Below are positions 5,681 to 20,006 of a stretch of DNA of 64,000 bases, in pieces (positions within the stretch are counted from its first letter, which is position 1; every line of letters begins with the position of its first letter). Both the position numbers and the translations under genes were made by a program. The notes beneath the pieces were generated by a model, which did not search any database, was not told the DNA's origin, and worked only from the letters and a program-made list of their open reading frames with translations. The DNA comes from Rubrivirga marina (lineage in GTDB: Bacteria > Bacteroidota > Rhodothermia > Rhodothermales > Rubricoccaceae): contig NZ_MQWD01000001.1 in the NCBI RefSeq assembly GCF_002283365.1, positions 497,694-561,693 of the forward strand, read 5' to 3'.

Positions 5681-7297
5681 TCAGGGCTTCGGCGGCGGCG
5701 TGCTCCGCATGGCGAGGGCCGGATCGAGGCGGGCCAGTCGAGCGAACGCCTCGTCGGCGCGGTCCGTCAGATCGGTCTTGCGCTGGGGGGTGCCGGCGGT
5801 GTTGCGGAGCGCGGTGCACGCCGTGTGGAGCAGGCGGAGCGCGGAGGCCGCCGCGTCGGCGTCCCACACGTCGAGCCGGTGGGCGCGGACGGCCTCGTCG
5901 GCGTCATCCAACAGCGCGAGGGCCACGTCGGGGCGGCCGGCGCCGAGGCACATCTCGGCCGCGGCGACGCCCCGCTCGAACCGGTCGCGCGGGTTGCCCG
6001 CGCCAACCATGAGCGCGGCCACGGCGCCCGGCACGTCGCCACCGGAGGCCGTCTCGCGGGCCTCGCGGATCGCGTCGGCGCTGGCGCTGTCGGCGCCCCC
6101 TCCTCCCCCGCCGCCAGCGCCCGGCGCAGCGATCTCTTGGAGCCACGCGACCGTCAGCGGGTCGGCGAACGGCGTGCCGTCGAGAAACGTCACCGTCGTG
6201 AGCGACGGGACGCGGCGGACGAGCGACGCCGTCGCGTCGACGACCGTGGCGTGGGCCGCGGCGGCGGGGGCGCCGAGCGCCTTGAGCGCGCCGGCCACGA
6301 GCCGCTGGAGGTCGAGCCAGAAGTGGAACGGGCTCTGCTGGAACGACGCCTCGGCCTCGCGCACGAGCACGGCGTGGTTGCCGGCCGTCAGCATCCCCGC
6401 GAGCGCGTCGCGGCGGGGCTTCGGCGGCGGCGGGATCTTGCCCGTCGGCGGCGCCCCTGGGATCGCGTTCCACCGGACGGCGCGGACGAGCCCGAACGCG
6501 ACGGCGTCGTAGGGATCCTCGTCGCGGAAGAACTGGGCCACCTTCATCACCACGATCCCGGCCTCCTTGGCCGTCGAGAACGAGGCGTCCCCTCCCCCGC
6601 CCGACGGCGCGGCCGAGGCGGAGGGAGCCGGCGTGCTCGGCGCGCTGGCGGTCGGGGTGGGCTCAGCGGCGGCAGGAGCGTCCACCTCGGGGGCCGGCGG
6701 GACCTCCTCGGGCGGCGGCTCGGGCTTGGGCAGGCGGCGGAGCTGCTCGCGGATCTCGCGGAGGACGCCACTGAAGGCCGGCGCGTCCTCGCCCATGGCC
6801 TCCGTCACGAACTCCTGGAGCGCGGAGGTCTCCGCCTCGGCGTGTTCGAGCGACTCCCGGTCCTCCGGCTCGGCGCGGTTGTTCTGGATCCACGCGCTCG
6901 TCCGCTCGGCGACGAACTGGAGGGCGGCTTGGCGCCCGCGCATCCGGCGGACCGGCGGGAACGCGTCGTCCCAGAACCCCTCCGTCACGGCGCGCGTGGC
7001 CGCCAGCCCCTCCGCGATCCCGGAGTAGCCGGCCGTCCGCGTGAGGCCGAGGACGAGGTAGCCGGCGACCGCGAGGTCCTTCGAGCGCTCCGAGAGGATC
7101 TTGGTCGAGAGGTCGACGATCGCGCTGAAGTCGACCTCGCCTGTGGCCGCGCCGAGCTCGTCGACCTCGGCCTTGAGCGTGAGGAAGTCGTCCTCGTACT
7201 TCATGTCCTCGCCAGCCGGGTTGTCGCCGGGGATCGGCGCGCGGATGGCCTCCAGGCGGGGCGTCGTCAGGGGCTCGAGGGTCTCGTCGTCGGCCAT
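5681..7297 (-). CDS. tssA: Type VI secretion protein TssA
   Basis: A 538-residue TssA. The N-terminal ImpA_N domain (about residues 10-130: RAPIPGDNPAGEDMKYEDDF and then SKDLAVAGYLVLGLTRTAGY) is the hallmark of the family. A Pro/Ala/Ser-rich linker (about 195-240) leads to a VasJ-like C-terminal part. TssA caps the growing sheath or contacts the baseplate, depending on its C-terminal type, and acts in the cytosol. It is the last gene of the T6SS locus, 11 nt downstream of tagF. A poly-Gly stretch near residue 395 separates the final helical region. Function is well supported; the exact TssA class is not. Confidence 0.88.
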   Translation of the reverse strand: MADDETLEPLTTPRLEAIRAPIPGDNPAGEDMKYEDDFLTLKAEVDELGAATGEVDFSAIVDLSTKILSERSKDLAVAGYLVLGLTRTAGYSGIAEGLAATRAVTEGFWDDAFPPVRRMRGRQAALQFVAERTSAWIQNNRAEPEDRESLEHAEAETSALQEFVTEAMGEDAPAFSGVLREIREQLRRLPKPEPPPEEVPPAPEVDAPAAAEPTPTASAPSTPAPSASAAPSGGGGDASFSTAKEAGIVVMKVAQFFRDEDPYDAVAFGLVRAVRWNAIPGAPPTGKIPPPPKPRRDALAGMLTAGNHAVLVREAEASFQQSPFHFWLDLQRLVAGALKALGAPAAAAHATVVDATASLVRRVPSLTTVTFLDGTPFADPLTVAWLQEIAAPGAGGGGGGGADSASADAIREARETASGGDVPGAVAALMVGAGNPRDRFERGVAAAEMCLGAGRPDVALALLDDADEAVRAHRLDVWDADAAASALRLLHTACTALRNTAGTPQRKTDLTDRADEAFARLARLDPALAMRSTPPPKP

Positions 7298-7308
7298 AAA
7301 AACGGGAG

Positions 7309-8238
7309 TCAGCGGATCGTGTGGAGGCGAGCGAGGACGTCGGCGACGGAGGCGTCGGGGTCGCGGAGGAGGCGCCGGAACGCGGGCGGGAGTTGGGTCG
7401 CAGCCCGACGGGCCGCCTCGGCGGCGCCGCGGTCCACGTGGGCGACGCGGTCCGGATCCGCGCGTCCGCCGAGGAGGGCGCGGAGGGTCGACGCGGGCGG
7501 CGTGGTAAAGAAGACGTAGAGGGCGTAGGGCGGCCCCTCGGCCCAGAGGATCGTCAGGCCGGAGCCGACGGTCGAGAGGAGGTACCAGCAGACGGCGAGC
7601 CAGACGGCCACGGCGTCGCGGCTGCGGAAGTCGGGCGCGGGCGGTGGGAGGGGGAAGCGGAGGCCGTACGGCGGCGGCGCGGGCGGCGCCTTGGCCAGCC
7701 GGTGGAACACGACCGCCGCACCGGACGCACCCGACCCGCCCCAGATCCGGTGCCAGAGGTCGTGGGCCTGGAGCCGCGCGATCGCCCGGACGTGCGTGTC
7801 GACCTCGGCCGACCGGCCCTCGGTCGACGCGAGCTCCGGGAGGTGCCCGAGGCGGTCCTCGACGTCCTCAAGCGGCGCGCCGCGGAGGGCGCCTTCCACG
7901 AGCCAGGCCGCGGCGTCGAACAAGGGCCCCCAGCGGAGCGGCCACGACGCGGCCGCGCCCTGGTCGAGCCCGTCGCGCAGGACCGTCCGCCCGGCCACGA
8001 GCGGGTACGCGCGGCCGACCTTGTCGCGGCTCAGGCGCACGGCGCCGACAATGGCGTGCGGACCGGGCGGGGCGTAGACCATCCGGTACAGCGGCCCCCG
8101 CGTGGTCCGCGCACCCGACTGGAGCGCCCGCTGCACGAGGTCGTCGAAGGCGTCGATCGCCGGGCCGGACGGGCCGCGGCGGACGAAGTCGGCGCGCGCG
8201 GGGAGCTTGCCGAAGAGGACGGGGCCCGTGTCGGTCAT
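7309..8238 (-). CDS. tagF: T6SS-associated protein TagF (ImpM family)
   Basis: A 309-residue protein starting at ATG 8238 with VLFGKLPARADFVRRG, the characteristic opening of the TagF/ImpM family (DUF2094). In Pseudomonas and Agrobacterium TagF represses T6SS assembly after translation, in part by binding the FHA protein. An FHA gene is present in the same locus, so the same antagonism is plausible. The open frame extends about 130 codons upstream without homology, and the MTDTGP start fits the family better. A hairpin lies just upstream (8251-8274), between tssM and tagF. Confidence 0.85.
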   Translation of the reverse strand: MTDTGPVLFGKLPARADFVRRGPSGPAIDAFDDLVQRALQSGARTTRGPLYRMVYAPPGPHAIVGAVRLSRDKVGRAYPLVAGRTVLRDGLDQGAAASWPLRWGPLFDAAAWLVEGALRGAPLEDVEDRLGHLPELASTEGRSAEVDTHVRAIARLQAHDLWHRIWGGSGASGAAVVFHRLAKAPPAPPPYGLRFPLPPPAPDFRSRDAVAVWLAVCWYLLSTVGSGLTILWAEGPPYALYVFFTTPPASTLRALLGGRADPDRVAHVDRGAAEAARRAATQLPPAFRRLLRDPDASVADVLARLHTIR

Positions 8239-8250
8239 CCCAGCGTGGCG

Positions 8251-8274
8251 CCGAGGCGGGCGCTCCCGCCTCGG
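8251..8274. repeat. Inverted repeat between tssM and tagF
   Basis: CCGAGGCGGG (8251-8260), the 4-nt loop CGCT and CCCGCCTCGG (8265-8274) make a perfect 10-bp stem. It uses the same CCGCCTCGG core as the gene-end palindromes, with the arms in the opposite order. It may dampen readthrough from tssM into tagF and tssA. Confidence 0.55.
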
Positions 8275-8345
8275 TCGGCTGGCGGGGCACCTCGCAGGGC
8301 GTCCCGACCGCGAGAGGCCCGCGTGCGAGCGGCGGGGCGGCGCAT

Positions 8346-11300
8346 CTAGTTGGCCGTCCGCGGCAGCGAGAAGCGGAGGAACGAGGCGGGGTTGGCGAGC
8401 GGCGTCGCCTCGGTCGTCGTCCGCATCTCGTACTGCGCCGTGACGGAATGCGGGCCGTCCCGGAAGGTCCACGTCACGTCGTAGAGCGTCCCGCCGCGGG
8501 GGCGGACCGTCGCGTCCTGGAACAGCCGGAAGACGGCCCAGTCGCCCTCGTACTCCGTCGCGAGGGGTCCGAGCTGGCGCTGGACCGTGACGAACGCGCC
8601 TGGCGTGCCGGGCCAGCGGAAGTCGGTCCACCGCGTGCTCCCGAGCCGGTACACGCTGTTCGAGCCGTGGATGCCGACGGCGACGGCGTCGACGGCGAGC
8701 GCGCGCTGGGCGGCGTCGGACGAGTAGGTCGGGAGGTCGGGGCGGAGGCGGAACGTGAGGTCGCCGGAGAAGAGGGCGCGGCCGATCTCCTGGCCCCGCG
8801 CGACGGCGCGGCGGAGCGCGGGCGACCCGCCCCCGTCGCCGAGCGCCTCGGCGAGCGTCGCCAGTTCGCCGCCGGCGGGGTCGAAGAAGGCGCGCGCGTC
8901 GTCGATGGCCGCGTCGCGCGACGAGCTCGGGTCGAACGGGTAGCGCCCGGCGATCCGGCCGTAGGCCTCCAGGGCGACCGAGAGCGCCTCGGCCGCAGCC
9001 TCCTCGGCGGCGCCGGACGCGGCCTCGGCCGCCTCCGTCGCGGCCGACGTCACGGCGAGGGTGGTCGTGATGTCGAGCGGCTCGAAAAAGAGGTTCGAGC
9101 GCGTCTGGCGGTCCATGCCGCGCGTGCCCTGCTCGATCTCGTCCTTCGTCACGGCCAGAAGGTCGGCGGCCATGGCACGGTCGCCGGCGGCGCCGAGGAT
9201 CCGGCGGCCGAACTGGGCGAGCGCCTCGAGGGCCGCATAGAGCCCCTCGTCGGCCTCGCCGGCCGGGAGGCCGGCCGCGTTGAGCCGGTGGATGCCCGCG
9301 AACGCCTCGGCGATAGGGTTGGGCGAGGCCGTCGTGTCCGCCTCGGCGTTGTCGCCGAGGCCGACGGCCGCGGCGGCGCGGTCCATGAACCCACGCGAGC
9401 GCGGCGCCGTGTCTTCCGCCGGCAGCGTCGTCTGCTCCGACACGACGGCCAGCAGCCAGCCGATGGGCGAGTCCGTCGCCGAGCCGAGGATCGCCAGCCG
9501 CTCCTCAGCCGCGGCGCCCGAGACCTCCTTGTAGTGGACCGAGTGGAGGAAGCGCGTCCAAGCGTTGACGTAGTCGGACTGGTAGCGCGTCATGAGCGCG
9601 TCGTACACCACGTCCGGGTCGCGGAGCTCGGGCGGGAGGTCCTCGGCGGTCCGCCCCAGCACCCAGTACTCGCCGGCCGGGTTGTCGGAGGCCTGCTGGA
9701 AGCGGCTCTTCACGACGCGGTCCCAGCCGTCACGCGTAAAAAAACCCGGCACGATCCCCGCCGGAGCGAACAGCGGGAGGTGCTCGGGCTTGACGGCGTC
9801 GGCGAGCCCGAGGGGGGGCAACCTGGCCAGGGCCTCTCGCCGGATCCGTTCGTACAACCCATCGAGGGTCGGCGGGATGTCGACCACGGCGATGGCCGCG
9901 TTGATGAGCGAGCGATCGGCGTCGAACGGCTCGACGAGCCCGGCCGCCAGCCCGTCCACGAAGGCGTCGGTCTGGCGGACCACGAGGCCGGCCATCTCGT
10001 CGTTGTCGCCAGCGGCGTCGGCGAGCGCGTTGCGGGGCGCGATCTCGGCGAGGCGCGTCTTGAGCGCGTCGCGGAAGTACTCGCTGCTGCGGAGCGAGTC
10101 GGCGTGGGTCGTCAGGAGGAGGTACGCCTCGAGGTCGTTCTCGATGTCGACGCGGCGGGCGGCCTGCTGAGCGGCGAGCGTCTCGCCCGGCGTGTCGAGC
10201 GTGTCGGCCTCGTCGAACCGCCGCGACCGTTCCAGCGACGCTCGAAGCTGGCGCATCGCGTAGACGGCCACGAGGTCGCGGACCTCGCCGTAGTACACGC
10301 GCGACGCCGGCTCACGGACCGTGTCGCCCCGGTCGAGCCCGAGGCGGAGCGCCCGGCTCAGCGGGCGAGGCGAGTTCAGCCGCACGACCTCCTCGCGCAG
10401 CCGCTCCAGCCGGTTCACGTCGGAGTACCGCGCGCCCTCGACGCGGAACGAGGCGCCCGTCGCCTCCTCGGCCCGGTCCATGACGCGCTTGAGGTCGAGG
10501 CTGCTCCGGGCGCCCGCGAAGCCGAGCAGGATCGCCACGAGGGCCGCCGTGCCGAGCGCCGCGAGCCCGGTCCGCGTCATGGCCCGCCACGTGGCCCCGG
10601 CCGCCCGCTTCGTCCGCCGCGCGACGTAGCGGTCGGGGAAGACGACGTCGGTGAAGACGTCCTTGAGGAAGTAGCTCTTCGGCGTCTCCGGCGGGCGCGG
10701 CGGCGGCGGCGTGCTGAGGCCGAACTGCTTCGCCAGCGCGCCGATCACGCGGTCGATGGGGGCGCCCTCCTGCGTGCCGCTCGTGAAGTAGAACCCGCGG
10801 AAGAGCGGGCCGTCGGCGAGCGGGGTCGGGGCGAAGACGCGCGCCGAGAACCGGGCCAGCCGGTCGCGGAGCGCGCCGAACTCGAGCGGGAAGTCGTAGA
10901 TCCGCTGGCGCTCCTCGCGGCGGAGGTTCCGCGAGAGCCGCTGCATCCGGACCGGCCGGAGCGCCTTCATCAGCCCGTCGAACTCGCGCTCGACGACCTC
11001 GTCCGGCGCCGCCGTCGAGTACGGCTCGACGGTCGCGCCCCAGACCTGCTCGCGGTCCTCGCGGTCGAGCTCGCCGAAGGTCTCGACGAAGCCCGGCACG
11101 AGGTCGGTCTTGGTCACGACGAGGTAGACCGGCAGTCGGAGCCCGAGCTGCGCCACGAGTTCGTCGACGCGGCGGCGGACGTTGTCGGCGTGGTCCTCCA
11201 GCTCGCGCTCGTCGCCCAGCAAATCCTGCGCGCTGATGCCGACGAGGACGCCGTTGATGGGCCGGTCGGGCCGGCTCTCCTTGAGCGCGTCGAGGAAGGC

Positions 11301-11864
11301 GTTCCACTCCTCGCGGTCCTCGTCCTCGGTCGTGTAGCGGCCGGCGGTGTCGAGGAGGATGGCCTCGTCGGTGAAGAACCAGTCGCAGTTCCGCGTGCCG
11401 CCGACGCCGCGGACGCGCTCGGCGCCGGCCGGGAAGCGGAGGCCGCTCTCAAGGAGCGCCGTCGTCTTGCCCGCGCCGGGCGGGCCGACGAAGAGGTACC
11501 ACGGCAGCGCGTAGAGCGCCTTCTTGCCGCGACCGAACCGGCTCGACCCGCCGAGGCTCGACGCCTTGAGCTGTTCGACGGCCCGGTCGAACGACTCCTG
11601 CATCCGCTGGATCTCGGCCTTCCGGTCGGGCGCCATCTGCGCGGCCTCCCGCGCGGACTGCTCCTTCAGGGCGTCCTCGATGTTGCCGCCCGACCGCCGC
11701 GCCTTCATCGCCGAGGCGGCCAGGGTCCCGACGGCGGCCACCAGCAGCCCGATCACGATGAGCAGCAGCGTCGTCATCGGGACGCCGTAGCGGAGCAGCA
11801 TCAGGAACGTGCCGCTGATGCCGACCGCGCCGAGAAGCGAGAAAATGATCTTGCGAGGCGACAT
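8346..11864 (-). CDS. tssM: Type VI secretion membrane protein TssM (IcmF)
   Basis: A 1172-residue inner-membrane protein, the usual size for TssM. Two N-terminal helices (about residues 6-24 and 30-50) are followed by a cytosolic P-loop domain with FVGPPGAGKTTALLESG (residues 126-141) and LLDTAGRY as the DxxG motif. A third membrane helix is near residue 430 (LAALGTAALVAILLGFAG), and the large remainder is periplasmic and ends in the family's beta-rich domain. TssM spans the envelope and, with TssL and TssJ, forms the membrane complex. Here the Walker A motif is intact, which is not so in all homologs. The gene follows tssL by 12 nt. Confidence 0.93.
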   Translation of the reverse strand: MSPRKIIFSLLGAVGISGTFLMLLRYGVPMTTLLLIVIGLLVAAVGTLAASAMKARRSGGNIEDALKEQSAREAAQMAPDRKAEIQRMQESFDRAVEQLKASSLGGSSRFGRGKKALYALPWYLFVGPPGAGKTTALLESGLRFPAGAERVRGVGGTRNCDWFFTDEAILLDTAGRYTTEDEDREEWNAFLDALKESRPDRPINGVLVGISAQDLLGDERELEDHADNVRRRVDELVAQLGLRLPVYLVVTKTDLVPGFVETFGELDREDREQVWGATVEPYSTAAPDEVVEREFDGLMKALRPVRMQRLSRNLRREERQRIYDFPLEFGALRDRLARFSARVFAPTPLADGPLFRGFYFTSGTQEGAPIDRVIGALAKQFGLSTPPPPRPPETPKSYFLKDVFTDVVFPDRYVARRTKRAAGATWRAMTRTGLAALGTAALVAILLGFAGARSSLDLKRVMDRAEEATGASFRVEGARYSDVNRLERLREEVVRLNSPRPLSRALRLGLDRGDTVREPASRVYYGEVRDLVAVYAMRQLRASLERSRRFDEADTLDTPGETLAAQQAARRVDIENDLEAYLLLTTHADSLRSSEYFRDALKTRLAEIAPRNALADAAGDNDEMAGLVVRQTDAFVDGLAAGLVEPFDADRSLINAAIAVVDIPPTLDGLYERIRREALARLPPLGLADAVKPEHLPLFAPAGIVPGFFTRDGWDRVVKSRFQQASDNPAGEYWVLGRTAEDLPPELRDPDVVYDALMTRYQSDYVNAWTRFLHSVHYKEVSGAAAEERLAILGSATDSPIGWLLAVVSEQTTLPAEDTAPRSRGFMDRAAAAVGLGDNAEADTTASPNPIAEAFAGIHRLNAAGLPAGEADEGLYAALEALAQFGRRILGAAGDRAMAADLLAVTKDEIEQGTRGMDRQTRSNLFFEPLDITTTLAVTSAATEAAEAASGAAEEAAAEALSVALEAYGRIAGRYPFDPSSSRDAAIDDARAFFDPAGGELATLAEALGDGGGSPALRRAVARGQEIGRALFSGDLTFRLRPDLPTYSSDAAQRALAVDAVAVGIHGSNSVYRLGSTRWTDFRWPGTPGAFVTVQRQLGPLATEYEGDWAVFRLFQDATVRPRGGTLYDVTWTFRDGPHSVTAQYEMRTTTEATPLANPASFLRFSLPRTAN

Positions 11865-11876
11865 GCCAGTCTGGGG

Positions 11877-13430
11877 CTACTCCGCCGAGGCGGCGGTGAG
11901 GGCGCGGAGGTCGTCGGCCGTGTCGTTGGCGGCGCCCGACAGCGAGAAGCTGAGGCCGAGGTAGAGGAGCGCGACGAGGACGGCGGCGCCGACCCAGAGG
12001 GCCCATGTCGGGAGGCCGTCCTTCTCCGCCTCGGCGGGCACCTCGCGGGACCGGCCGCGCGGCGACAGAGCGCCGGGCGCGCCGTAGGCCCGCTCCAGCC
12101 GACCGTGGAGGTCCTCGACCAGCCGCCGCAGCACCTCGCGCCCATGGATCGCGTAGCGGCCCTTGAAGCCGAGTGCGAGGCAGAGGTAATACACCTCGAG
12201 GACGCCGGTCCGCGTGGCGCCCTCGTCGAGGAGGCGCTTGAGCCGGTCGAAAAAGCGCTCGCCCGCGTCGTAGCGGTCGTAGTGCGTGAGTTGGAGCGGC
12301 TGGGACGACCACGCGTCGTGGCCCGGCCAGTCCGTCGCGAGGATGGCCTCGTCGAGGAACGCCACGAGGCAGAACGTGGCCTCCTCGATGTCCTCCTCCG
12401 GCACGTTGTAGGAGCGGGCCGTCCGGGCGGACTCCGCGAGAAGCCGCTCGATCCGCTGGCGGAGCGCCTGCCCATCGCCGAGGCGCTGGGCCGCGCGGAT
12501 CTGGAGGACGAGCGAGAACACGGGCGTGAACGCGCCCGCCAGCGTCCGCTCAGTCCCGAACGACTCGGGCAGTTCCATCTCGTCCCCGCCCGCGTACGGC
12601 GTTCCGTGGAACGACGAGTCGTCGTATCCCCCCCCCCCACCGCCACCAGCGCTTTTGAGGGAAGCGAACGGGTCGCTGGTCTCCGTCGACGGGCGGGCGG
12701 CGAAGGGGTCCTCGCGGTCGCGGGGCTGCGGCGCGGGCGCCTTTGGAGCCGGTGCGAACGGGTCGGCCGCGCCGAGCTCGAACGGATCGTCCTTCGGCTC
12801 CGGCTTCGGGGGCGCCTTCGCCTCGGGCGGAGGGCCCGCCGAGAAGGGGTCGGGAGTCGAGGGCGGCGACGGCGCGAACGGGTCCGGCGATCCGCCGGGG
12901 CGCGGGGCGAACGGGTCGTCGCCGGTCTCGGGCGCCCGGAACGGGTCCGGGTCCGGCGTCGGCGCGGCCGTCGGCGGCGGCGCGAAGGGATCGCCCCCCG
13001 AGACGAGGTCGGCCGCCTCGGGCGGCGCGGCGAACGGGTCATCGGCGGGTGGACCGTCCGAGGAGGGGCCCGACCCGAAGTCGATCGGCGGCCCGAACAG
13101 GTCGGTCGCGTCTCCGCCCGACTTGTTTTCCAAAGCCGACGGTTTCGACGGCGGCGGGGCGAAGGGGTCGGGGGACCCGCTCGGGCGTGGGGCGAACGGG
13201 TCGTCGGCGGGAACCGTCGACGGCTCGGGAGCGAACGGGTCGGCGTCCGGCGCGAACGGGTCCTTCGAGGTGGGCGCGGGCCGGGACGGGGCGAACGGGT
13301 CCGCCGACGGCTCGCCCGAGGCGGGCGGGTCCGGGGCGAACGGGTCGGGCTCGTCGGCGTCGGGCGGTGGGCTCCCGTAGGGGCGGTAGATCCGCGTCGC
13401 GTCGTCGTCGGGGCGGGGGTCGTCGGCCAT
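11877..13430 (-). CDS. tssL: Type VI secretion membrane protein TssL (DotU) with a long DPFAP-repeat N terminus
   Basis: A 517-residue protein from ATG 13430. The C-terminal 240 residues are a DotU/TssL domain (TLAGAFTPVFSLVLQIRAAQ, EEATFCLVAFLDEAILATDW, LEVYYLCLALGFKGRYAI) ending in one membrane helix (about 475-497), as in TssL, which is tail-anchored in the inner membrane. There is no OmpA-type peptidoglycan-binding domain. The N-terminal half is disordered and holds 16 DPF tripeptides, ten of them exactly DPFAP, plus one DLFGPPIDFG. The latter recurs as DLFGPPVD in the FHA protein of the same locus. A poly-Gly stretch joins the halves and is encoded partly by an 11-base G run. Typical TssL proteins are about 220-450 residues, so the extension is unusual. 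Confidence 0.9.
   Translation of the reverse strand: MADDPRPDDDATRIYRPYGSPPPDADEPDPFAPDPPASGEPSADPFAPSRPAPTSKDPFAPDADPFAPEPSTVPADDPFAPRPSGSPDPFAPPPSKPSALENKSGGDATDLFGPPIDFGSGPSSDGPPADDPFAAPPEAADLVSGGDPFAPPPTAAPTPDPDPFRAPETGDDPFAPRPGGSPDPFAPSPPSTPDPFSAGPPPEAKAPPKPEPKDDPFELGAADPFAPAPKAPAPQPRDREDPFAARPSTETSDPFASLKSAGGGGGGGYDDSSFHGTPYAGGDEMELPESFGTERTLAGAFTPVFSLVLQIRAAQRLGDGQALRQRIERLLAESARTARSYNVPEEDIEEATFCLVAFLDEAILATDWPGHDAWSSQPLQLTHYDRYDAGERFFDRLKRLLDEGATRTGVLEVYYLCLALGFKGRYAIHGREVLRRLVEDLHGRLERAYGAPGALSPRGRSREVPAEAEKDGLPTWALWVGAAVLVALLYLGLSFSLSGAANDTADDLRALTAASAE
12628..12638 (-). repeat. Homopolymeric G(11) tract in tssL
   Basis: Eleven consecutive C on the plus strand are eleven G in the tssL coding strand, encoding Gly between the repeat region and the DotU domain. 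A gain or loss of one base would shift the frame before the functional domain. Confidence 0.9.
12664..13347 (-). repeat. DPFAP-coding repeat region of tssL
   Basis: The plus-strand sequence GCGAACGGGTC or a close variant recurs across this stretch, each copy encoding DPFA on the minus strand. Spacing is irregular (about 4-40 codons), so this is a scattered motif array rather than a strict tandem repeat. Spacers are rich in Pro, Ala, Ser and Gly. Confidence 0.85.
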
Positions 13431-13440
13431 GGGTGAGGGG

Positions 13441-14799
13441 TCAGCCCGGCGTCGGCGCGAGCAACTCGTACTCGGCGTCGGCGAACTCGATCGGGGTGAA
13501 GAGGGCGACGGCACCGGCGTCGCGGATGGCGTCCCAGAAGGGACCGCTCCGGCGCGGCACGAAGTAGGCGGCGCGGGGGTCGACCGGGAGGCCCGAGGGC
13601 GGCGTCGGCGCGGCCTGGAGCGGGAGCGCGAGCGTGGCCGACCGGATGACGGCCTCGATCGTGTCGGGCGAGGCCACGCGGAGCATCTGCGGGAGCTGCT
13701 GGCGGAGGTGCTCCGGGCTCACGCCGTCGCGTCGGACGGCGAGCACGAGCGCGGCGGCGTCCATGACCTCCGGCGCCAGCTCGGCGTGGAACAGGTTGGC
13801 GCGGCGGCGCACGAGCGGGACGCGCGTGTAGTTCTGCTTCGGCGCCCGCCCGCCGAGCAACTGGTCGATGGCCGCGGCGAGGTCGCGGAACGGCCCGGTC
13901 GGGTCGGCGTGGTCGTACGTCGGGAGGTCGCTCGGGGAGGGCCCGGCGTCGGGGACGGCGGCCCAGAGGCGGCCCGCGAGGCCGGCCATCTCGCCGAACA
14001 CGGCGCACGGGTGGGCCTCCGTCCGGCGCAGGTGGTCCAGCCTCGGCGTGTACTCGGCGGTGGCCGCGAGGAGCGCCTGCGCCGTCACGTCGGCCGGCGA
14101 GATCTCGCGCTGGTTCCGGACGGCCTGCCAGCGGCGGCCGAACTCGCCGGCCCGCGCCGCCAGCCGCTCGGTCGTCCGGCGGACGAGCGCGTCGAGCGCG
14201 CCAGTCGCGCCCGTCTGCACCGACGGCGCGATGAAGGACGGGTCGGCGGCGAAGCTCCCGTCGGGGTCGCGCGTGACCTCGGCGATGGGGAGCGTCACGT
14301 AGTCCTCGCGCGGCTCGCCGTCGAACAGGATCCGCGCGTTGAGCCGGCCGACTTGCACGTCGCGCTCGTCGGCGCCCGTCGTGTCATCGGGGACCGCGAC
14401 GGTCTCGGCGATGAACCGCGTCTCGCGCCGCGCGGCAGCGCCCTCGAGCAGCACGTTCGACCCGCCCACGCGGACCGACGGCACCGCCAAGTAGACCCGC
14501 ACGCGGTCGGCCGTCGGGCCCAGCCCGTCGCGGACGTCGCGGGTGGCGGGGACGGGGCCGTCCTGGGGAAACCGGAACGGGAGCCCGTCGGGCATCACGC
14601 CGCGCGCGGCGCCGAGCGCGAACTCGCCGTTGGCGAGCCGGTCGGCGTCGATCTCGAGGTGCGCGAGGCCCCAACCGTAGCGCGCGGCGGCGTCGACGCG
14701 GGCGTCGAGGTCGGCGCGGACGGCGCGGTCCCACTGCTGGAGATGGTGGGGGTCGAGGGTCATGCCCTCGTACCAGACGACTCGACGGCGGTCCGACAC
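13441..14799 (-). CDS. tssK: Type VI secretion baseplate protein TssK
   Basis: A 452-residue TssK (VasE/ImpJ family). The start chosen is GTG 14799, because it gives MSDRRRVVWYEGMTLDPHHL, which matches the family opening (VxWxEGMxLxPQHFQQ). The ATG at 14856 overlaps a promoter-like box. TssK is a trimeric adaptor that links the TssFG wedge of the baseplate to the TssM/TssL complex. Family features include the TRFIAETVAVP segment and the C-terminal head domain ending in a hydrophobic strand. It is the first gene of the tssK-tssL-tssM-tagF-tssA unit and is followed 10 nt later by tssL. TssE, TssF and TssG are absent from this window. Confidence 0.88.
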   Translation of the reverse strand: MSDRRRVVWYEGMTLDPHHLQQWDRAVRADLDARVDAAARYGWGLAHLEIDADRLANGEFALGAARGVMPDGLPFRFPQDGPVPATRDVRDGLGPTADRVRVYLAVPSVRVGGSNVLLEGAAARRETRFIAETVAVPDDTTGADERDVQVGRLNARILFDGEPREDYVTLPIAEVTRDPDGSFAADPSFIAPSVQTGATGALDALVRRTTERLAARAGEFGRRWQAVRNQREISPADVTAQALLAATAEYTPRLDHLRRTEAHPCAVFGEMAGLAGRLWAAVPDAGPSPSDLPTYDHADPTGPFRDLAAAIDQLLGGRAPKQNYTRVPLVRRRANLFHAELAPEVMDAAALVLAVRRDGVSPEHLRQQLPQMLRVASPDTIEAVIRSATLALPLQAAPTPPSGLPVDPRAAYFVPRRSGPFWDAIRDAGAVALFTPIEFADAEYELLAPTPG

Positions 14800-14854
14800 G
14801 GGCGGGGTCAGGGGAGATGGATTCCGGCGCGGCACGTGCGCGCGCCGCCTCCCC

Positions 14855-14862
14855 ATCAAATA
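14855..14862 (-). promoter_or_regulatory. Candidate -7 box for tssK
   Basis: On the minus strand TATTTGAT lies 56 nt before the tssK GTG start, in a short AT-rich patch directly after a terminator-like hairpin. It suggests that tssK begins its own transcription unit. Confidence 0.35.
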
Positions 14863-14874
14863 CTGAGAACCGAC

Positions 14875-14894
14875 GGGCGGAGCGTCATCCGCCC
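14875..14894 (-). terminator. Hairpin after the T9SS-sorted propeller gene
   Basis: GGGCGGA, a 6-nt loop and TCCGCCC form a perfect 7-bp stem directly downstream of the stop codon at 14899. It would separate the upstream sigma-kinase-FHA-tssJ-propeller unit from tssK. Confidence 0.5.
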
Positions 14895-14898
14895 TCGG

Positions 14899-16455
14899 CT
14901 ACCGAACGACCGTTAGCCGCGCGCTGACCTCGCCCGCCTCGGACGCCGCGCGGACCGTGTAGACCCCGGCCGGCCACCCGCTCCCGTCGACCGCGACCCG
15001 CTGGCCGTCCCGCGCCGCGCCGTCCCACACGACGGCCACTTCGCGGCCCAGCACGTCTAAGACCGTTACTCGCACGGCGACCGGCCCCGCCTCGGCCACG
15101 GTCACGACGACCTCGGCCCGGCCCCGCGACGGGTTCGGACGGACCGACAGCCCGAGGCCCGACGGCGCCCCCGGACCCGCCTCCGAGGCCACCGCCCACG
15201 CCGGGCACGTCGTCCGCCACACCCCGTTGTCCGTCCCCGCCCAGACCCGGCCGTCGCGGTCCACGCGGAGGTGCTTCGGCCCCCACCCCGGCCACGCCCC
15301 GCCCGGGCACGCCCGCTCGCACGCCCCGGCCGGCGGCCGCGCCCCGAGCCACGGCGCCTCCGGCCCCAGCGCCGACCACGTCCGCCCCCCGTCGCCCGAC
15401 CACACGACCGTCCCGACGTACCGTTGAGGCGGCGTTCCATTCTGGACCAGCCCGACGACGAGCGACCCGTCCCCGAGCGCGACCATCTCCGGCTCCCCGC
15501 TGTTCCGGTCCAGCCCGTTCTCGCCGTACACGAACCGGTGCCGCTCCGCCCACGTCGCCCCGCCGTCGTCGGAGGCCAGGACCACGTTGTACGCCCGGTC
15601 CTCGAAGTAGAAGTCCCGGGCGAGGACGTACACGGTCCCCCCGTACGGGTGGGCCCCGTCCGGGACGAGGACGAGGTCGTGGCCCACCCACCGGAACTCC
15701 TGGTAGAGCGACGTGGCCTCCCACACGTGGCCCCCGTCGTCGGACGTGAGCACCCCGCTCCCGACGCCGAGCACGAGCCGGCCCTCGGGGAGCATCGGCG
15801 ACGGCGGGAGCTCGACGAGGTCCCGGCGCCGGACGTACTCGGGGGCCGACCGCTGCTCGACGGCCCGCCACGTGGCCCCCTCGTCGTCGCTTCGGCAGAG
15901 GTAGGCGAGGAGCCAGAGCGCCCGCTCGCGGCCCGGCCCGTACGTCCGGACGATCCGGTCGTCCACCGAGTCCCCCCGGCACGCCTCGGTCTCGACGTCG
16001 GCCCACGTCTGCCCCCCGTCGGTCGACCGGGTCAGCGACCCCCCGCCCGACCCCTCCACGGCGATCACGAGCCCGCCCGGGGCCGCGTAGATCCCGTACG
16101 GCGCCTCGCGCTCCTCGGCGTAGGCCCAGGCCGAGTCGGGCGGGACGGCCGGACTCGGGGCGCCGTCGTGGAGCCGGGCGAGCCCGAACGAGACCGGGTA
16201 CGGGTACTCCCCGCCGGGGTAGAGGTACGGGGGCGGGTAGTAGAGCGTGGCGTAGACCGCGTCGGCGAGGCCGAACGGCCGGCCGTCGGCGGGGTCGAGG
16301 AGGGCGAGGGCCGCGACCCGGGCGCTGTCGGCCCCGACGAACTCCCACGCGACGTCGGGCGGCTCGGGCACGGCGGGCGGGGCCTGGGCGCGCCCGGCCG
16401 CCGCCCCGAGCGCGAGCGCGGCGGCGAGGAGGCCGAGGCGGAGGGAGCCGGGCAC
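14899..16455 (-). CDS. Secreted Asp-box (BNR) beta-propeller with T9SS sorting domain
   Basis: A 518-residue exported protein from GTG 16455. A signal peptide (LGLLAAALALGAAAGRAQA) is followed by a propeller with at least five Asp boxes (S-x-D-x-G-x-x-W), for example STDGGQTWAD, SDDEGATWRA, SDDGGATWAE and SGDGGRTWSA. The last 85 residues (LSVRPNPSRGRAEVVV ... VLDVLGREVAVVWDG ... GWPAGVYTVRA ... RLTVVR) are a type A T9SS sorting domain, so the protein should cross the outer membrane by type IX secretion. Sialidase catalytic residues were not recognised, so it is probably a binding or structural propeller rather than a sialidase. It sits 17 nt after tssJ, inside the T6SS locus. Confidence 0.88.
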   Translation of the reverse strand: MPGSLRLGLLAAALALGAAAGRAQAPPAVPEPPDVAWEFVGADSARVAALALLDPADGRPFGLADAVYATLYYPPPYLYPGGEYPYPVSFGLARLHDGAPSPAVPPDSAWAYAEEREAPYGIYAAPGGLVIAVEGSGGGSLTRSTDGGQTWADVETEACRGDSVDDRIVRTYGPGRERALWLLAYLCRSDDEGATWRAVEQRSAPEYVRRRDLVELPPSPMLPEGRLVLGVGSGVLTSDDGGHVWEATSLYQEFRWVGHDLVLVPDGAHPYGGTVYVLARDFYFEDRAYNVVLASDDGGATWAERHRFVYGENGLDRNSGEPEMVALGDGSLVVGLVQNGTPPQRYVGTVVWSGDGGRTWSALGPEAPWLGARPPAGACERACPGGAWPGWGPKHLRVDRDGRVWAGTDNGVWRTTCPAWAVASEAGPGAPSGLGLSVRPNPSRGRAEVVVTVAEAGPVAVRVTVLDVLGREVAVVWDGAARDGQRVAVDGSGWPAGVYTVRAASEAGEVSARLTVVR

Positions 16456-16472
16456 CGGGCGACCGCCCGCCC

Positions 16473-16976
16473 TTACTCCGACGTCACGACGATCCCGCCC
16501 TCCGTCACGGTCACGCGCACGGCCCGGCCGCGGACGCGCGACGCCGGCAACACGGCCCGCCAGCCGTCGCCCTCGGGCGTCCGGAGGTCGGCGGCGACGC
16601 CGAGGAACGCGGCCCCGTCGAGCGTCACCTCCTCGAGCGAGTCGGTGCTCCCCGGGCGGACCGTCGCGTCGCGGACGGGCCCGCCGAGGTCGGCGCCGAG
16701 CGCGCCCTCGGGGTCCTCCCAAAAGACCTGGACCGGCGTGGCGAGGAATGTGGCGTCGCTCACGAGCGGGTAGAGGTACACGCGCGCCGCGTTGCCGCCC
16801 GCGTTCATGTCGGCCGCGCCGACGAGCGTCATCGAGGTCGGGCCGGGCGGGAGCGGCGGCGGCTCGTCCGGGCCGGCGGCGACCGGGGCCGCCTCGGTGT
16901 CGCCCCCGCCGAGGCCGAGGAGGCTGCACCCGCCGAGGGCGAACGCGAGGGCGACGAGGAGCGAGAAGCGGATCAT
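16473..16976 (-). CDS. tssJ: Type VI secretion outer-membrane lipoprotein TssJ
   Basis: A 167-residue lipoprotein. The signal sequence is MIRFSLLVALAFALGGC with the lipidated Cys at position 17, followed by an Asp/Glu/Pro-rich linker and a small beta-sandwich. The segment TSMTLVGAADMNAGGNAARVYLYPL matches the TssJ/VasD pattern of a residue pair followed by an Asn- and Ala-rich loop and a strand. TssJ anchors the TssM periplasmic domain to the outer membrane. Its ATG overlaps the FHA stop codon (ATGA), which implies translational coupling. TssJ is found in T6SS class i and is normally absent from the Bacteroidota class iii system. Confidence 0.85.
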   Translation of the reverse strand: MIRFSLLVALAFALGGCSLLGLGGGDTEAAPVAAGPDEPPPLPPGPTSMTLVGAADMNAGGNAARVYLYPLVSDATFLATPVQVFWEDPEGALGADLGGPVRDATVRPGSTDSLEEVTLDGAAFLGVAADLRTPEGDGWRAVLPASRVRGRAVRVTVTEGGIVVTSE

Positions 16977-18307
16977 GAGTCGGAGGCGGCAGCGGCGCGG
17001 GCGTGCGCCAGGGTGTCGAGGTAGGCCCGCGAGAAGATCGGGCGGTAGACGCGACGCTCGGCGGCGGCGAAGTCCTCGCCCCGCATCATCTCGCACCGCT
17101 GGCGGACGAGGTCGAGGAGCGCGCGCTCGCGGGCGCCTGGCATCGGCCCGGCCTTGACCTGGTCGCCGATCCGGTCGGGGTCGAGCCCGTTGACGAGGAC
17201 GGCGGCGCCCTCGCGGGCCGCCGCGCGGTAGCCCTCCAGCAGGCTCTGGTGGTGCTGGAGGACCGCCTCGGTGGCGTCGACGAGGAGGTCGAGGCGCTGG
17301 GCCCGGAGCGCCGGGTCGTCGGTCATGAGGTGCCGGAGGAGCGCGCCCTCGTCGGCGTCGAAGAGGAACGCGGTCTCGGGGGCGTGGATGATGGTGTGCC
17401 CCAGGAACTCGTGCCGGAACTTCCCGGGCATGCTGATGAGCCGGACCACGACGCCCGCCAGCGCCCGGTGGAGGTCGTCGGGGCCCGCCGGCGTGGCGGC
17501 AAGCGGTGAGGCAGCGGGCGGCGGGCTGGCGGCCGGCGGCGAGGCGAACGGATCGTCCCCGGCCGGCGCGGCGAACGGGTCGGCCGACGCGTCGCCCCCT
17601 TCGCCGAGCGGCGGCCCGAACAGGTCGTCGAGATCGCCGTCCCCGTCGGCGTCGACCGGCGGGCCGAACAGGTCGTCGAGGGCCTCCGGTGGCGTCGTGG
17701 TCGGCACGACGGGCGGCTCGTCCGACGGGTCTCCCGAGGCGGGCGGGGCCGGGTCGGGCTCGGCGAGCGCGGCGTCGGGGTCGACGAGCGGGACGATCCC
17801 GCGGAGGTCAGCCTCCGGCCCGAGCGCGTCGCGGAGGGCCATCCGGAGCGCGTCGGCGCGGTCGCGGTAGTCGACCTGCTGGAACGCCTGACGGAGGCCG
17901 CCGAGGGCGACCGCCACCGCCTCGGCCGGGTCGACGAGCGGGTTGGCGAAGGCGGCGCCGAAGACGGTCCGGTCGAGGTCGTCGGCCACGAGGACGTCGC
18001 GGTCGAGCTCGACGGTCACCTGGAACGGACCGAGCTGGATCTGGTCGCCGTCGCGGACGGCTCGGGGCTCGGTCCCCACGCGCTCGCCGTTGAGGAACGT
18101 GTGGTTCTTGCTGCCGAGGTCGGCGATCCGGATGGCGTCGCCCTCGACGCGGAGCGCGGCGTGCTGCTTGCTCACGACGCGGTCGGGGTCGTCGAGCGGG
18201 AGGTCGCAGGTGCCGGCTCGGCCCATCACGATCGTCTCTTGGTCCAGCACGTACGTCCGCGGCTCCCCCCCGCGCTCGGTGTGGACGACGATCAGCTTGA
18301 CTCTCAT
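16973..18307 (-). CDS. tagH: T6SS FHA-domain protein (Fha/TagH type)
   Basis: A 444-residue cytosolic protein from ATG 18307. The N-terminal FHA domain (about residues 18-100) has the phosphothreonine-binding signature GRAGTCDLPLDD, SKQHAALRV and GSKNHTFLNGERV. The middle is disordered and contains DLFGPPVD, DLFGPPLGE, DPFAAP and DPFASP, motifs shared with the N terminus of TssL. The C-terminal 170 residues are helical and match the T6SS FHA C-terminal domain (FRHEFLGHTIIH, RVYRPIFSRAYLDTLAHA). In Pseudomonas Fha1 is phosphorylated by PpkA and triggers T6SS assembly. The kinase gene directly upstream fits that scheme. No PppA phosphatase gene is visible. Confidence 0.88.
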   Translation of the reverse strand: MRVKLIVVHTERGGEPRTYVLDQETIVMGRAGTCDLPLDDPDRVVSKQHAALRVEGDAIRIADLGSKNHTFLNGERVGTEPRAVRDGDQIQLGPFQVTVELDRDVLVADDLDRTVFGAAFANPLVDPAEAVAVALGGLRQAFQQVDYRDRADALRMALRDALGPEADLRGIVPLVDPDAALAEPDPAPPASGDPSDEPPVVPTTTPPEALDDLFGPPVDADGDGDLDDLFGPPLGEGGDASADPFAAPAGDDPFASPPAASPPPAASPLAATPAGPDDLHRALAGVVVRLISMPGKFRHEFLGHTIIHAPETAFLFDADEGALLRHLMTDDPALRAQRLDLLVDATEAVLQHHQSLLEGYRAAAREGAAVLVNGLDPDRIGDQVKAGPMPGARERALLDLVRQRCEMMRGEDFAAAERRVYRPIFSRAYLDTLAHARAAAASDS

Positions 18308-18359
18308 GGGTAGGCGCGACGGCGGAACGCGACGGGAGGGCGGGTCCGGACGTCTCGGC

Positions 18360-19340
18360 TCAGGCGAGGCGGGTCCCGTCCATGACCGCGTCGAACACGT
18401 CGTCGAGGGCCTGCGCGAGCGCGCCGGCCGTCGGGAAGCGCCGTGCCGGGTCGGTCTGGAGGGCCGTCCGGAGGAGGCCCCCAACGTAACGCCCCAACGG
18501 GACGCCGGACGGCGCCCGCGCGTCGTCTGGCAGTTCGATCGTCACGTCACCCTCGCCGCCCGCGGCCCACGGGAGGTGCCGCCGCCGGCCCTCCAGCACC
18601 TCGCGGATCACGAGGCCGAGCGCGTACACGTCGGCCTCGCGCCCGACGTCACCGCCGAGGATCTGCTCGGGCGCCGCGAACTCGGGCGTGAGGCCCAGGC
18701 GCCGGGCCGCCCCGTCGGGCGTCGGGTGGCGGAGGTCGCGGGCCAGCCCGAGGTCGAGCACGGCCACGGTCCCGTCCGCGCGGACGAGCAGGTGGTCGGG
18801 CTTGAGGTCGCCGTGAACGACGTCTTCCAGGTGGATCCCCTCGACGGTCTGGCACACGCGCCACAGGAGGAGCAGGCGCTCCCACGCGTTCCGGCTCCGG
18901 GCGTACGCACTCAGCCGCTGCCCCTCGATCCGCTCGAGCGCGATGTAGGGGCGCCCATCGTCGTGCGTCCCGGCGTCGAGCAGGCGGGCGAGACCGGGCG
19001 CGCGGAGCCGGCCAAGGAGGCCCGCCTCGTGCGAAAACAAAGACTCGGTGGCAGCGCCGAGCCGCTTCGCCAACTTCACTGCCGCACGCTCCGACCCGGC
19101 CGGCGCCGGACGGACGGCCTCGTAGACGGTGCTCAGCCCGCCCTGCCCGATCCGCTCGCCCAGCTCCCAGTCACCGACCCGCTCCGGCGCCTCCGGCCCC
19201 ACGGGGTCGGCGAGGCGGAGCGGGCCGTCCATGAGCCGGTCGAACAGGGCCTCGGCCGCGGCCGCCTCGGGCGGCGGCTTGTCGGAGTCGGGGGCCGGGG
19301 CGCCGCCGCTCCCGGCCGGAGCCGTGGGGCGCGACGGCAT
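18360..19340 (-). CDS. Cytosolic Ser/Thr protein kinase with atypical catalytic loop
   Basis: A 326-residue protein that is almost only a Hanks-type kinase domain, with no membrane helix. The Gly loop is GERIGQGGLSTVY (61-73), the ATP-binding Lys is K89 (AAVKLAK) and the helix C Glu is E105. The catalytic loop reads VVHGDLKPDH (174-183): Asp178 and Lys180 are kept, HRD is HGD, and the Mg-binding Asn is replaced by His183. The Mg loop is DLG (196-198) instead of DFG. An APE-like AAPEQILGG is present. The gene lies 3 nt after an ECF sigma gene, a pairing known for ECF43-type sigma factors, and 52 nt before the FHA gene. It likely phosphorylates the FHA protein, the sigma factor or both. Confidence 0.85.
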   Translation of the reverse strand: MPSRPTAPAGSGGAPAPDSDKPPPEAAAAEALFDRLMDGPLRLADPVGPEAPERVGDWELGERIGQGGLSTVYEAVRPAPAGSERAAVKLAKRLGAATESLFSHEAGLLGRLRAPGLARLLDAGTHDDGRPYIALERIEGQRLSAYARSRNAWERLLLLWRVCQTVEGIHLEDVVHGDLKPDHLLVRADGTVAVLDLGLARDLRHPTPDGAARRLGLTPEFAAPEQILGGDVGREADVYALGLVIREVLEGRRRHLPWAAGGEGDVTIELPDDARAPSGVPLGRYVGGLLRTALQTDPARRFPTAGALAQALDDVFDAVMDGTRLA

Positions 19341-19343
19341 GGC

Positions 19344-20006
19344 TCAGGCCTCGGCGATCTCGGCGTCGGCCGACAGCTCGCGGTAGAGCCACACCCGGAC
19401 CTCCCGCCAGCACCGCGTGACGGTGGCCGGCGAGAGCCCCAGCGTGGCCGCCGTCTCGTCGACGGTGAGCCCGGCGAAGAACCGGCACTCGACGACGCGC
19501 GCGCCGCGCTCGTCGACCTTCTCGAGCCGCTCGAGCGCCTCGCCGATCCCGGCGATCTCGAAGGCCTCGTCGTCGGTCACGACCACGGCGGAGGTCTCGT
19601 CGAGCGGCAGCGGGCGCTGGCCGCCGCCGCGCTTCTGCGCGCACCGAGCCTCGGCGTACGTCAGGAGCACCTGGCGCATGGCCCGCGAGAGCGTCATCAT
19701 GAAGTGCGACCGGCTCCGGAAGTTCATCGACGACTGCGCCAGCTTGAGGTACGCCTCGTGGACGAGCGCCGTCGTGCACATCGACGGCGTGCCGAAGTAA
19801 CGGAATCGGTGGGCCGCCGCCATCCGGCGGAGCTGTTCGTAGATCCGGGCGCCGCGCTCCGGCGCGTCGTCGCGGTGGCCGAGCACGCCGAGGAGGAGGG
19901 CGACGTCGCCGTCGAGCGCCGCGTCGTCGACACCCGGCTCGGCGGGCGGATCGAGGCGTTTGAAGGAGCCGGCCTTCGGGGCCGGGGGCGGGAGCGTGGC
20001 AGGCAT
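19344..20006 (-). CDS. ECF-family RNA polymerase sigma factor
   Basis: A 220-residue ECF sigma factor from ATG 20006. Region 2 contains CTTALVHEAYLKLAQ and the following SHFMMTLSRAMRQVLLTYAEAR; region 4 has VVECRFFAGLTVDETAATLGLSPATVTR, a helix-turn-helix for the -35 element. The pattern (MAAAHRFRYFGTPSMCTTALVHEAYLKL) is that of the TIGR02999 group, often encoded beside Ser/Thr kinases and regulated by phosphorylation instead of an anti-sigma factor. No anti-sigma gene is next to it here. It heads the T6SS locus and probably drives that locus or itself. An N-terminal stretch of about 40 residues is Pro/Ala-rich. Confidence 0.9.
   Translation of the reverse strand: MPATLPPPAPKAGSFKRLDPPAEPGVDDAALDGDVALLLGVLGHRDDAPERGARIYEQLRRMAAAHRFRYFGTPSMCTTALVHEAYLKLAQSSMNFRSRSHFMMTLSRAMRQVLLTYAEARCAQKRGGGQRPLPLDETSAVVVTDDEAFEIAGIGEALERLEKVDERGARVVECRFFAGLTVDETAATLGLSPATVTRCWREVRVWLYRELSADAEIAEA

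What the first reader, a model, noticed from the sequence alone, without database searches (positions are those of the whole stretch)
5681..20006. TssJLM-type T6SS locus in a T9SS-bearing Bacteroidota-like background
TssJ, TssK, TssL, TssM, TagF, TssA, an FHA protein, a Ser/Thr kinase and an ECF sigma factor are read directly. Bacteroidota are known for T6SS class iii, which lacks TssJ, TssL and TssM; here the proteobacterial-style membrane complex and phospho-relay occur together with a T9SS sorting domain. Sheath, tube, ClpV, TssEFG, VgrG and PppA are missing from the window, so the system is split across the genome or partly lost.
Basis: partly seen in the sequence, partly recalled or inferred. 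Interest (0 to 1): 0.75.

Follow-up and report, generated by a model that had tools for sequence, protein, structure and literature searches.

The report
Split complete T6SS in Rubrivirga genome
The window holds the membrane-anchor half of a complete bacterial 'molecular crossbow' (type VI secretion system, ordinary class i) in a marine Rubrivirga-type bacterium; the missing half lies 550 kb away on the same contig, next to an odd conserved gene module that includes a one-piece version of the normally two-piece contractile sheath protein.

Summary
All named genes are at 5681-20006: TssA, TagF, TssM, TssL, TssK, TssJ, a FHA protein, a Ser/Thr kinase and an ECF43-type sigma factor, plus a BNR protein with a T9SS sorting tail. 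The "missing" genes are not lost. tssB, tssC, hcp, tssE, tssF, tssG, clpV and vgrG lie on the same contig about 550 kb away, so all 13 core genes exist. In a congener the two halves form one 45-kb locus; here it is broken exactly between tssA and tssB. The system is T6SS class i: TssJ, TssK, TssM, TssC and VgrG pass curated cut-offs, no class-iii TssC is found, and Rhodothermales TssC sits far from class iii. The host is Rubrivirga (Rhodothermales; "Bacteroidota" only in GTDB), so nothing is a hybrid. Class-i T6SS is patchy but recurrent there.

The less ordinary part lies outside the window: an accessory module with HEAT, a single-chain TssB-TssC fusion, FHA-TM-lytic transglycosylase, kinase-TM-PEGA, two CsgG/TPR lipoproteins and a T9SS-sorted protein. 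The fusion accompanies the T6SS in all 16 T6SS-bearing relatives and none of the 44 others. It keeps the ClpV-docking helix, and related fusions occur in Nitrospirota and Acidobacteriota. No description was found in the library searched.

The parts
5681..7297 (-). TssA (ImpA_N + VasJ type), 538 aa; last T6SS gene before the break; in G001 the next gene is tssB
7309..8238 (-). TagF (N-terminal domain match); probable start at 8238
8346..11864 (-). TssM / IcmF, 1172 aa, three predicted TM helices
11877..13430 (-). TssL / DotU with a ~270-aa Pro-rich N-terminal extension starting MADDPRPDDDATRIYRPYG; this Thr-containing motif is conserved in three Rubrivirga genomes and is a candidate pThr/FHA site
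13441..14859 (-). TssK baseplate subunit, 472 aa
14899..16455 (-). Secreted BNR-repeat protein with a T9SS type A sorting tail; variable insertion between tssJ and tssK (absent in G002, 32% identical homologue in G001)
16473..16976 (-). TssJ outer-membrane lipoprotein (signal peptide with lipobox, SciN family)
16973..18307 (-). FHA-domain protein (partial TagH-like)
18360..19340 (-). Soluble Hanks-type Ser/Thr kinase, 326 aa, no TM helix predicted
19344..20006 (-). ECF sigma factor of the kinase-linked ECF43 type (motif CTTA against family consensus QTTA)

Best explanation
The window carries the membrane-complex, baseplate-docking and regulatory half of one complete class-i type VI secretion system. 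TssJ-TssL-TssM form the trans-envelope anchor and TssK docks the TssEFG-VgrG baseplate encoded in the remote half. TssA primes Hcp tube and TssBC sheath growth, contraction fires the spike, and ClpV recycles the sheath. The kinase probably phosphorylates the conserved Thr in the TssL N-terminal extension (DDATRIYRPYG), read by the FHA protein, and the ECF43 sigma factor, giving assembly and transcription control; TagF restrains the system. Shown: all genes, their families, the contiguous locus in a congener, and the break between tssA and tssB. Inferred from named homologues: assembly, firing and phospho-control. The tail of the ancestral locus, now beside tssB-vgrG, adds an accessory module (HEAT, single-chain TssBC, FHA-TM-transglycosylase, kinase-TM-PEGA, CsgG/TPR lipoproteins, T9SS-sorted protein). 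I infer that it couples a sheath-like ring to local peptidoglycan opening; that last step is much less certain than the rest.
For: Curated family matches over cut-off for TssJ, TssK, TssL, TssM, TssC and VgrG and Pfam matches for B, C, Hcp, E, F, G, ClpV and VgrG at C1:1066733-1077861. G001 of the same genus carries ECF-kinase-FHA-J-K-L-M-TagF-A-B-C-Hcp-E-F-G-ClpV-VgrG-DUF2169-HEAT-BCfus-FHA/SLT-kinase/PEGA-CsgG1-CsgG2-T9SS protein in one 45-kb stretch at 62-94% protein identity for these genes, and its DNA aligns to window 5690 on one side and C1:1066671 on the other of the break. TssC tree: Rhodothermales one clade (SH-aLRT 99), separated from class iii by a branch of 6.85. ECF43/kinase control of a T6SS is experimentally known in Xanthomonas citri (PMC13147305) and TssL-pThr/Fha in Agrobacterium (PMC3953482).
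Against: No expression or function data. No PAAR or PppA gene was identified (not searched genome-wide). The split could be a misassembly of this 11-contig genome. The FHA protein misses the TagH cut-off. The TssL Thr motif occurs only in the three Rubrivirga genomes, so phospho-control by this route is not general to the order's T6SS.
Confidence: 0.87

Rival explanations
1. The split is an assembly artefact: the real genome has one contiguous locus as in G001.
For: G001 is contiguous; in G002 the CDF/thioredoxin contig does not run into tssA, so the G000 junction is not confirmed by any relative. The assembly has 11 contigs.
Against: Both halves lie on one 4.71-Mb contig, 97% complete, with ordinary genes on both sides of each junction. 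Break-and-separate arrangements also occur in G011/G025/G036 (TssK and TssC on different contigs) and G052 (fusion gene 3.2 Mb from tssC), so this locus does fragment.
Confidence: 0.2
2. The rearrangement inactivated the system: a decaying T6SS.
For: tssB-vgrG has lost its tssA-side neighbour; related G003 shows an interrupted clpV and a reduced fusion gene.
Against: All 13 core ORFs are intact with strong coding signal. The break falls in an intergenic stretch and the conserved block upstream of tssB (CTTTCC-GTAACAC, also present in G001) stays with tssB.
Confidence: 0.08
3. The single-chain TssB-TssC protein belongs to a second contractile apparatus rather than to this T6SS.
For: It is a full sheath-fold protein with its own conserved neighbours, and it can lie far from tssC (G052).
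Against: No second tube, baseplate, TssF or TssK set: single hits for TssK and TssF in the genome. It is absent from all 44 relatives without T6SS. It keeps the helix that recruits ClpV.
Confidence: 0.1
4. A class-iii or hybrid Bacteroidota T6SS that acquired TssJLM.
For: Host is Bacteroidota in GTDB and has a T9SS.
Against: No PF17541 TssC in this genome; 24 class-iii and 17 class-i genomes in the phylum sample do not overlap. Class-iii TssC is not even found by phmmer with this TssC and lies on a 6.85-long branch.
Confidence: 0.01

Closest known systems
T6SS class i (Pseudomonadota, e.g. Vibrio cholerae, Pseudomonas aeruginosa)
   Same: All 13 core components, TssJLM membrane complex, ImpA-type TssA, TagF, FHA, Ser/Thr kinase.
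   Different: Rhodothermota host; split locus; ECF43 sigma in the locus; TssL with a long N-terminal extension; accessory module with a fused TssBC.
T6SS class iii of Bacteroidia (TssNQOPR membrane complex, PMC10781749)
   Same: Same phylum in GTDB only.
   Different: Class iii lacks TssJLM and has its own TssC family PF17541, absent here.
Xanthomonas citri PknS-EcfK control of a T6SS (PMC13147305)
   Same: Hanks kinase next to an ECF43 sigma factor at a T6SS locus; conserved Thr in sigma region 2.2 (CTTA here).
   Different: PknS is transmembrane; this kinase has no predicted TM helix. Phosphorylation not shown here.
Agrobacterium TssL-Thr14 / PpkA / Fha switch (PMC3953482)
   Same: Thr near the TssL N-terminus, FHA protein and kinase in the locus.
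   Different: Motif DDATRIYRPYG shared only among three Rubrivirga genomes; not tested.
Agrobacterium TssC40/ImpD, second TssC paralogue required for Hcp secretion (PMC3702570)
   Same: A second, divergent TssC homologue alongside a canonical TssBC pair.
   Different: TssC40 is described only as a TssC homologue; the Rubrivirga protein is a TssB-TssC fusion. I did not align the two.

Membership tests
T6SS class i | TssJ-TssL-TssM membrane complex | tested here: met
   TIGR03352 45.7/31.6, TIGR03349 186/90, TIGR03348 629/388 bits against cut-off
T6SS class i | All 13 core genes tssA-tssM in the genome | tested here: met
   A, J, K, L, M in window; B, C, Hcp, E, F, G, ClpV, VgrG at C1:1066733-1077861
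T6SS class i | TssC groups with class-i TssC, not class iii | tested here: met
   TIGR03355 641 bits, cut-off 271.5; tree. Class ii (Francisella) was not in the tree.
T6SS class i | Contractile, Hcp-secreting activity | not testable with these tools
   needs experiment
T6SS class iii | TssC of family PF17541 | tested here: not met
   no match in G000; 24 of 395 phylum genomes match
T6SS class iii | TssN/O/P/Q/R membrane complex | not tested
   no search left; TssJLM present instead
ECF43 sigma factors | Sig-70_X6 family, adjacent Hanks kinase, Thr in place of acidic residues of region 2.2 | tested here: met
   TIGR02999 144.6/126 bits; kinase adjacent; CTTA motif
TagH (T6SS FHA protein) | TIGR03354 over cut-off | tested here: not met
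   65.3 bits, cut-off 120.25; FHA domain itself clear
T9SS type A cargo (BNR protein 14899-16455) | C-terminal sorting domain over curated cut-off | tested here: inconclusive
   22.0 against 23 bits; SprA present in genome
TssBC sheath fold (remote fusion protein) | TssB and TssC homology in one chain with sheath fold | tested here: met
   VipA and VipB over cut-off in one ORF; model pLDDT 75 aligns to VipB Z 27.9, 366 residues, 3.4 A; profile hits TssB and TssC chains in the PDB
Canonical TssC (equivalog TIGR03355) | score over cut-off and VipB_2 domain, for the fusion | tested here: not met
   95 against 271.5 bits; no PF18945 match

The most novel reading that the evidence does not exclude
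Rhodothermales and some Nitrospirota/Acidobacteriota T6SS use a dedicated single-chain TssB-TssC protein as a special ring of the contractile tail (baseplate-side or terminal cap). It is recycled by ClpV and paired with a membrane-spanning FHA-transglycosylase and a PEGA kinase that open peptidoglycan under phospho-control: an undescribed sheath-to-cell-wall coupling module.
Probability: 0.35. Interest if true: 0.75.

Novelty: new variant of a known kind. Interest (0 to 1): 0.5.

Why it matters
It places complete class-i T6SS in Rhodothermota, shows that class i and class iii are alternatives within GTDB 'Bacteroidota', and gives a case of a locus broken by an apparently recent rearrangement. 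The conserved fused-sheath/transglycosylase module offers a testable answer to how T6SS outside Pseudomonadota cross the peptidoglycan and end or anchor their sheath. It also pairs a T6SS with a conserved T9SS-exported protein.

Tried and rejected
A single inversion explaining the split was tested by looking for the two outer neighbours together in relatives: the CDF transporter has no close orthologue in G001, and the gene upstream of tssB (up490) lies 108 kb from the G001 T6SS. The rearrangement is therefore not a simple two-break inversion that I can prove. The many Pseudomonadota hits of the fusion profile are separate tssB+tssC pairs in tandem, not fusions; exceptions are Nitrospirota L087/L088, Holophagae L098 and a Rhodobacteraceae ORF in L121. 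No fusion-type match covering 80% of the query was found in plasmids. Sigma-70 promoter scan found nothing (not suited to this phylum). Text searches for T6SS with Rhodothermaeota, Rhodothermus/Salinibacter and Rubrivirga gave zero papers; this covers open-licence papers only. No TssK or TssM tree was built; TssC was used instead.

Full report
WHAT IS IN THE WINDOW. TssJ is hidden by a longer overlapping ORF in another frame; its true start gives a lipoprotein signal with lipobox, and it passes both the Pfam and the TIGR cut-off. TssL carries a long Pro-rich extension starting MADDPRPDDDATRIYRPYG.

WHERE THE REST IS. The window is C1:497694-561693 of a 4.98-Mb, 97%-complete genome. TssC and TssF searches hit C1:1067584 and C1:1070079. 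The gene run there is tssB, tssC, hcp, tssE, tssF, tssG, clpV, vgrG, then a DUF2169 gene, a candidate effector ORF (only a sub-cut-off AHH nuclease match) and an Imm11 immunity gene. Together with the window all 13 core genes exist; TssK and TssF were each found once in the genome.

HOST. A congener contig (G002) is recorded as Rubrivirga sp. SW42617_bin_3: Rhodothermales, phylum Rhodothermota in NCBI, which GTDB places in Bacteroidota (own knowledge, in line with the phylum sample holding class-iii genomes). SprA, the T9SS translocon, is present.

HOW THE SPLIT AROSE. In G001 (same genus) the whole set is one 45-kb locus. DNA alignment runs without interruption across tssB-tssA in G001, while in G000 it stops at window 5690 on one side and C1:1066671 on the other. 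The break is in the intergenic stretch. A conserved block just upstream of tssB stays with tssB, so its promoter may have been kept (inference). The junction is not seen in other relatives, and misassembly cannot be excluded. About 9% of class-i T6SS were reported in multiple loci (Abby et al., PMC4793230), so splitting itself is not unusual.

CLASS. TssC, TssK, TssM, TssJ and VgrG pass class-i equivalog or subfamily models. In a 395-genome phylum sample, class-i TssC (PF05943) occurs in 17 genomes and class-iii TssC (PF17541) in 24, with no overlap; G000 has only the former. TssM (PF14331) is found in the same 17 genomes as class-i TssC. In the TssC tree the Rhodothermales form one clade (SH-aLRT 99), far from class iii (branch 6.85). 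Within the order 16 of 60 genomes have the system, and the T6SS of G003, though same genus, groups with other families: patchy presence and replacement suggest transfer (inference).

CONTROL. Hanks kinase plus ECF43 sigma (TIGR02999; motif CTTA for consensus QTTA) matches the PknS-EcfK pair that controls a Xanthomonas T6SS. FHA protein plus a Thr-bearing TssL N-terminus resembles the Agrobacterium TssL-Fha switch. The motif DDATRIYRPYG is the same in G000, G001 and G002 while the repeats after it vary, and it is absent from short TssL of other Rhodothermales. That the Thr is phosphorylated is inference.

ACCESSORY MODULE. Next to the remote half: a HEAT protein (TIGR02270-like); a 604-aa protein with VipA and VipB homology in one chain; FHA (cytoplasmic) - one TM - SLT transglycosylase (periplasmic by topology); kinase - one TM - PEGA; two CsgG/TPR lipoproteins; and a T9SS type A tailed protein. 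The fusion occurs in all 16 T6SS genomes of 60 relatives (reduced in G003, truncated by a contig end in G027) and in none of the other 44; these counts are not phylogenetically independent. Its AlphaFold model (pLDDT 75.2, pTM 0.73) matches VipB over 211-583 (Z 27.9, 3.4 A, 366 residues), and single-chain phage-type sheaths over 33-583. The helix by which TssC recruits ClpV (GSLLDSILAKVD in this genome's TssC) has a counterpart in the fusion linker (e.g. LDNLLGLV, LDRLMGMVD) in all 13 aligned copies (ClpV role, PMC5048182). Nitrospirota L087 has HEAT, FHA-SLT and fusion together. The Holophagae L098 fusion lies divergently beside tssB. Fusions from three phyla form one clade, with a long-branch warning. 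The module's T9SS-tailed protein passes the curated cut-off in G000 and in all five tested Rhodothermales proteins. I infer that the fusion is a minor ClpV-recycled sheath ring and that the FHA-TM-transglycosylase opens peptidoglycan for the machine, as the MltE transglycosylase does for the E. coli system (own knowledge). A second TssC homologue being required has a precedent in Agrobacterium TssC40.

VERDICT. The finding is a real, complete, class-i T6SS in an under-studied phylum, ordinary in kind; the split is local; the T9SS/T6SS 'mixture' at the stated gene is incidental. The remote fused-sheath module is what deserves follow-up.

Noticed in passing
G000:C1:1082683-1096478 (loci L006, L007, L009): Conserved module HEAT / fused TssB-TssC / FHA-TM-SLT transglycosylase / kinase-TM-PEGA / two CsgG-TPR lipoproteins / T9SS-tailed protein, tied to T6SS presence in Rhodothermales.
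   Followed up: yes
window 14899-16455: BNR-repeat T9SS-tailed gene sits exactly between tssK and tssJ, is cleanly absent in G002 and replaced by a 32%-identical gene in G001: a variable insertion spot in a T6SS operon.
   Followed up: partly
L006:10280-12385: Candidate VgrG-linked effector ORF with lower G+C at its 3' end (weak, sub-cut-off AHH nuclease match) followed by an Imm11 immunity gene.
   Followed up: partly
L121:19357-21333 (also L107, L117 ends): Rhodobacteraceae T6SS loci carry a second TssB-like domain, in L121 in the same ORF as a TssC-like part, just after clpV.
   Followed up: no
G003:C1:626001-669859: Same-genus genome with a divergent T6SS (38-69% identity for most core proteins), clpV in two pieces and a reduced fusion gene: replaced and possibly decaying.
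   Followed up: no
G213, G235, G252, G311, G356 (L197-L206): Other classes of GTDB Bacteroidota carry class-i-like TssC with unusually long, divergent TssM-like ORFs (1319-1476 aa).
   Followed up: no
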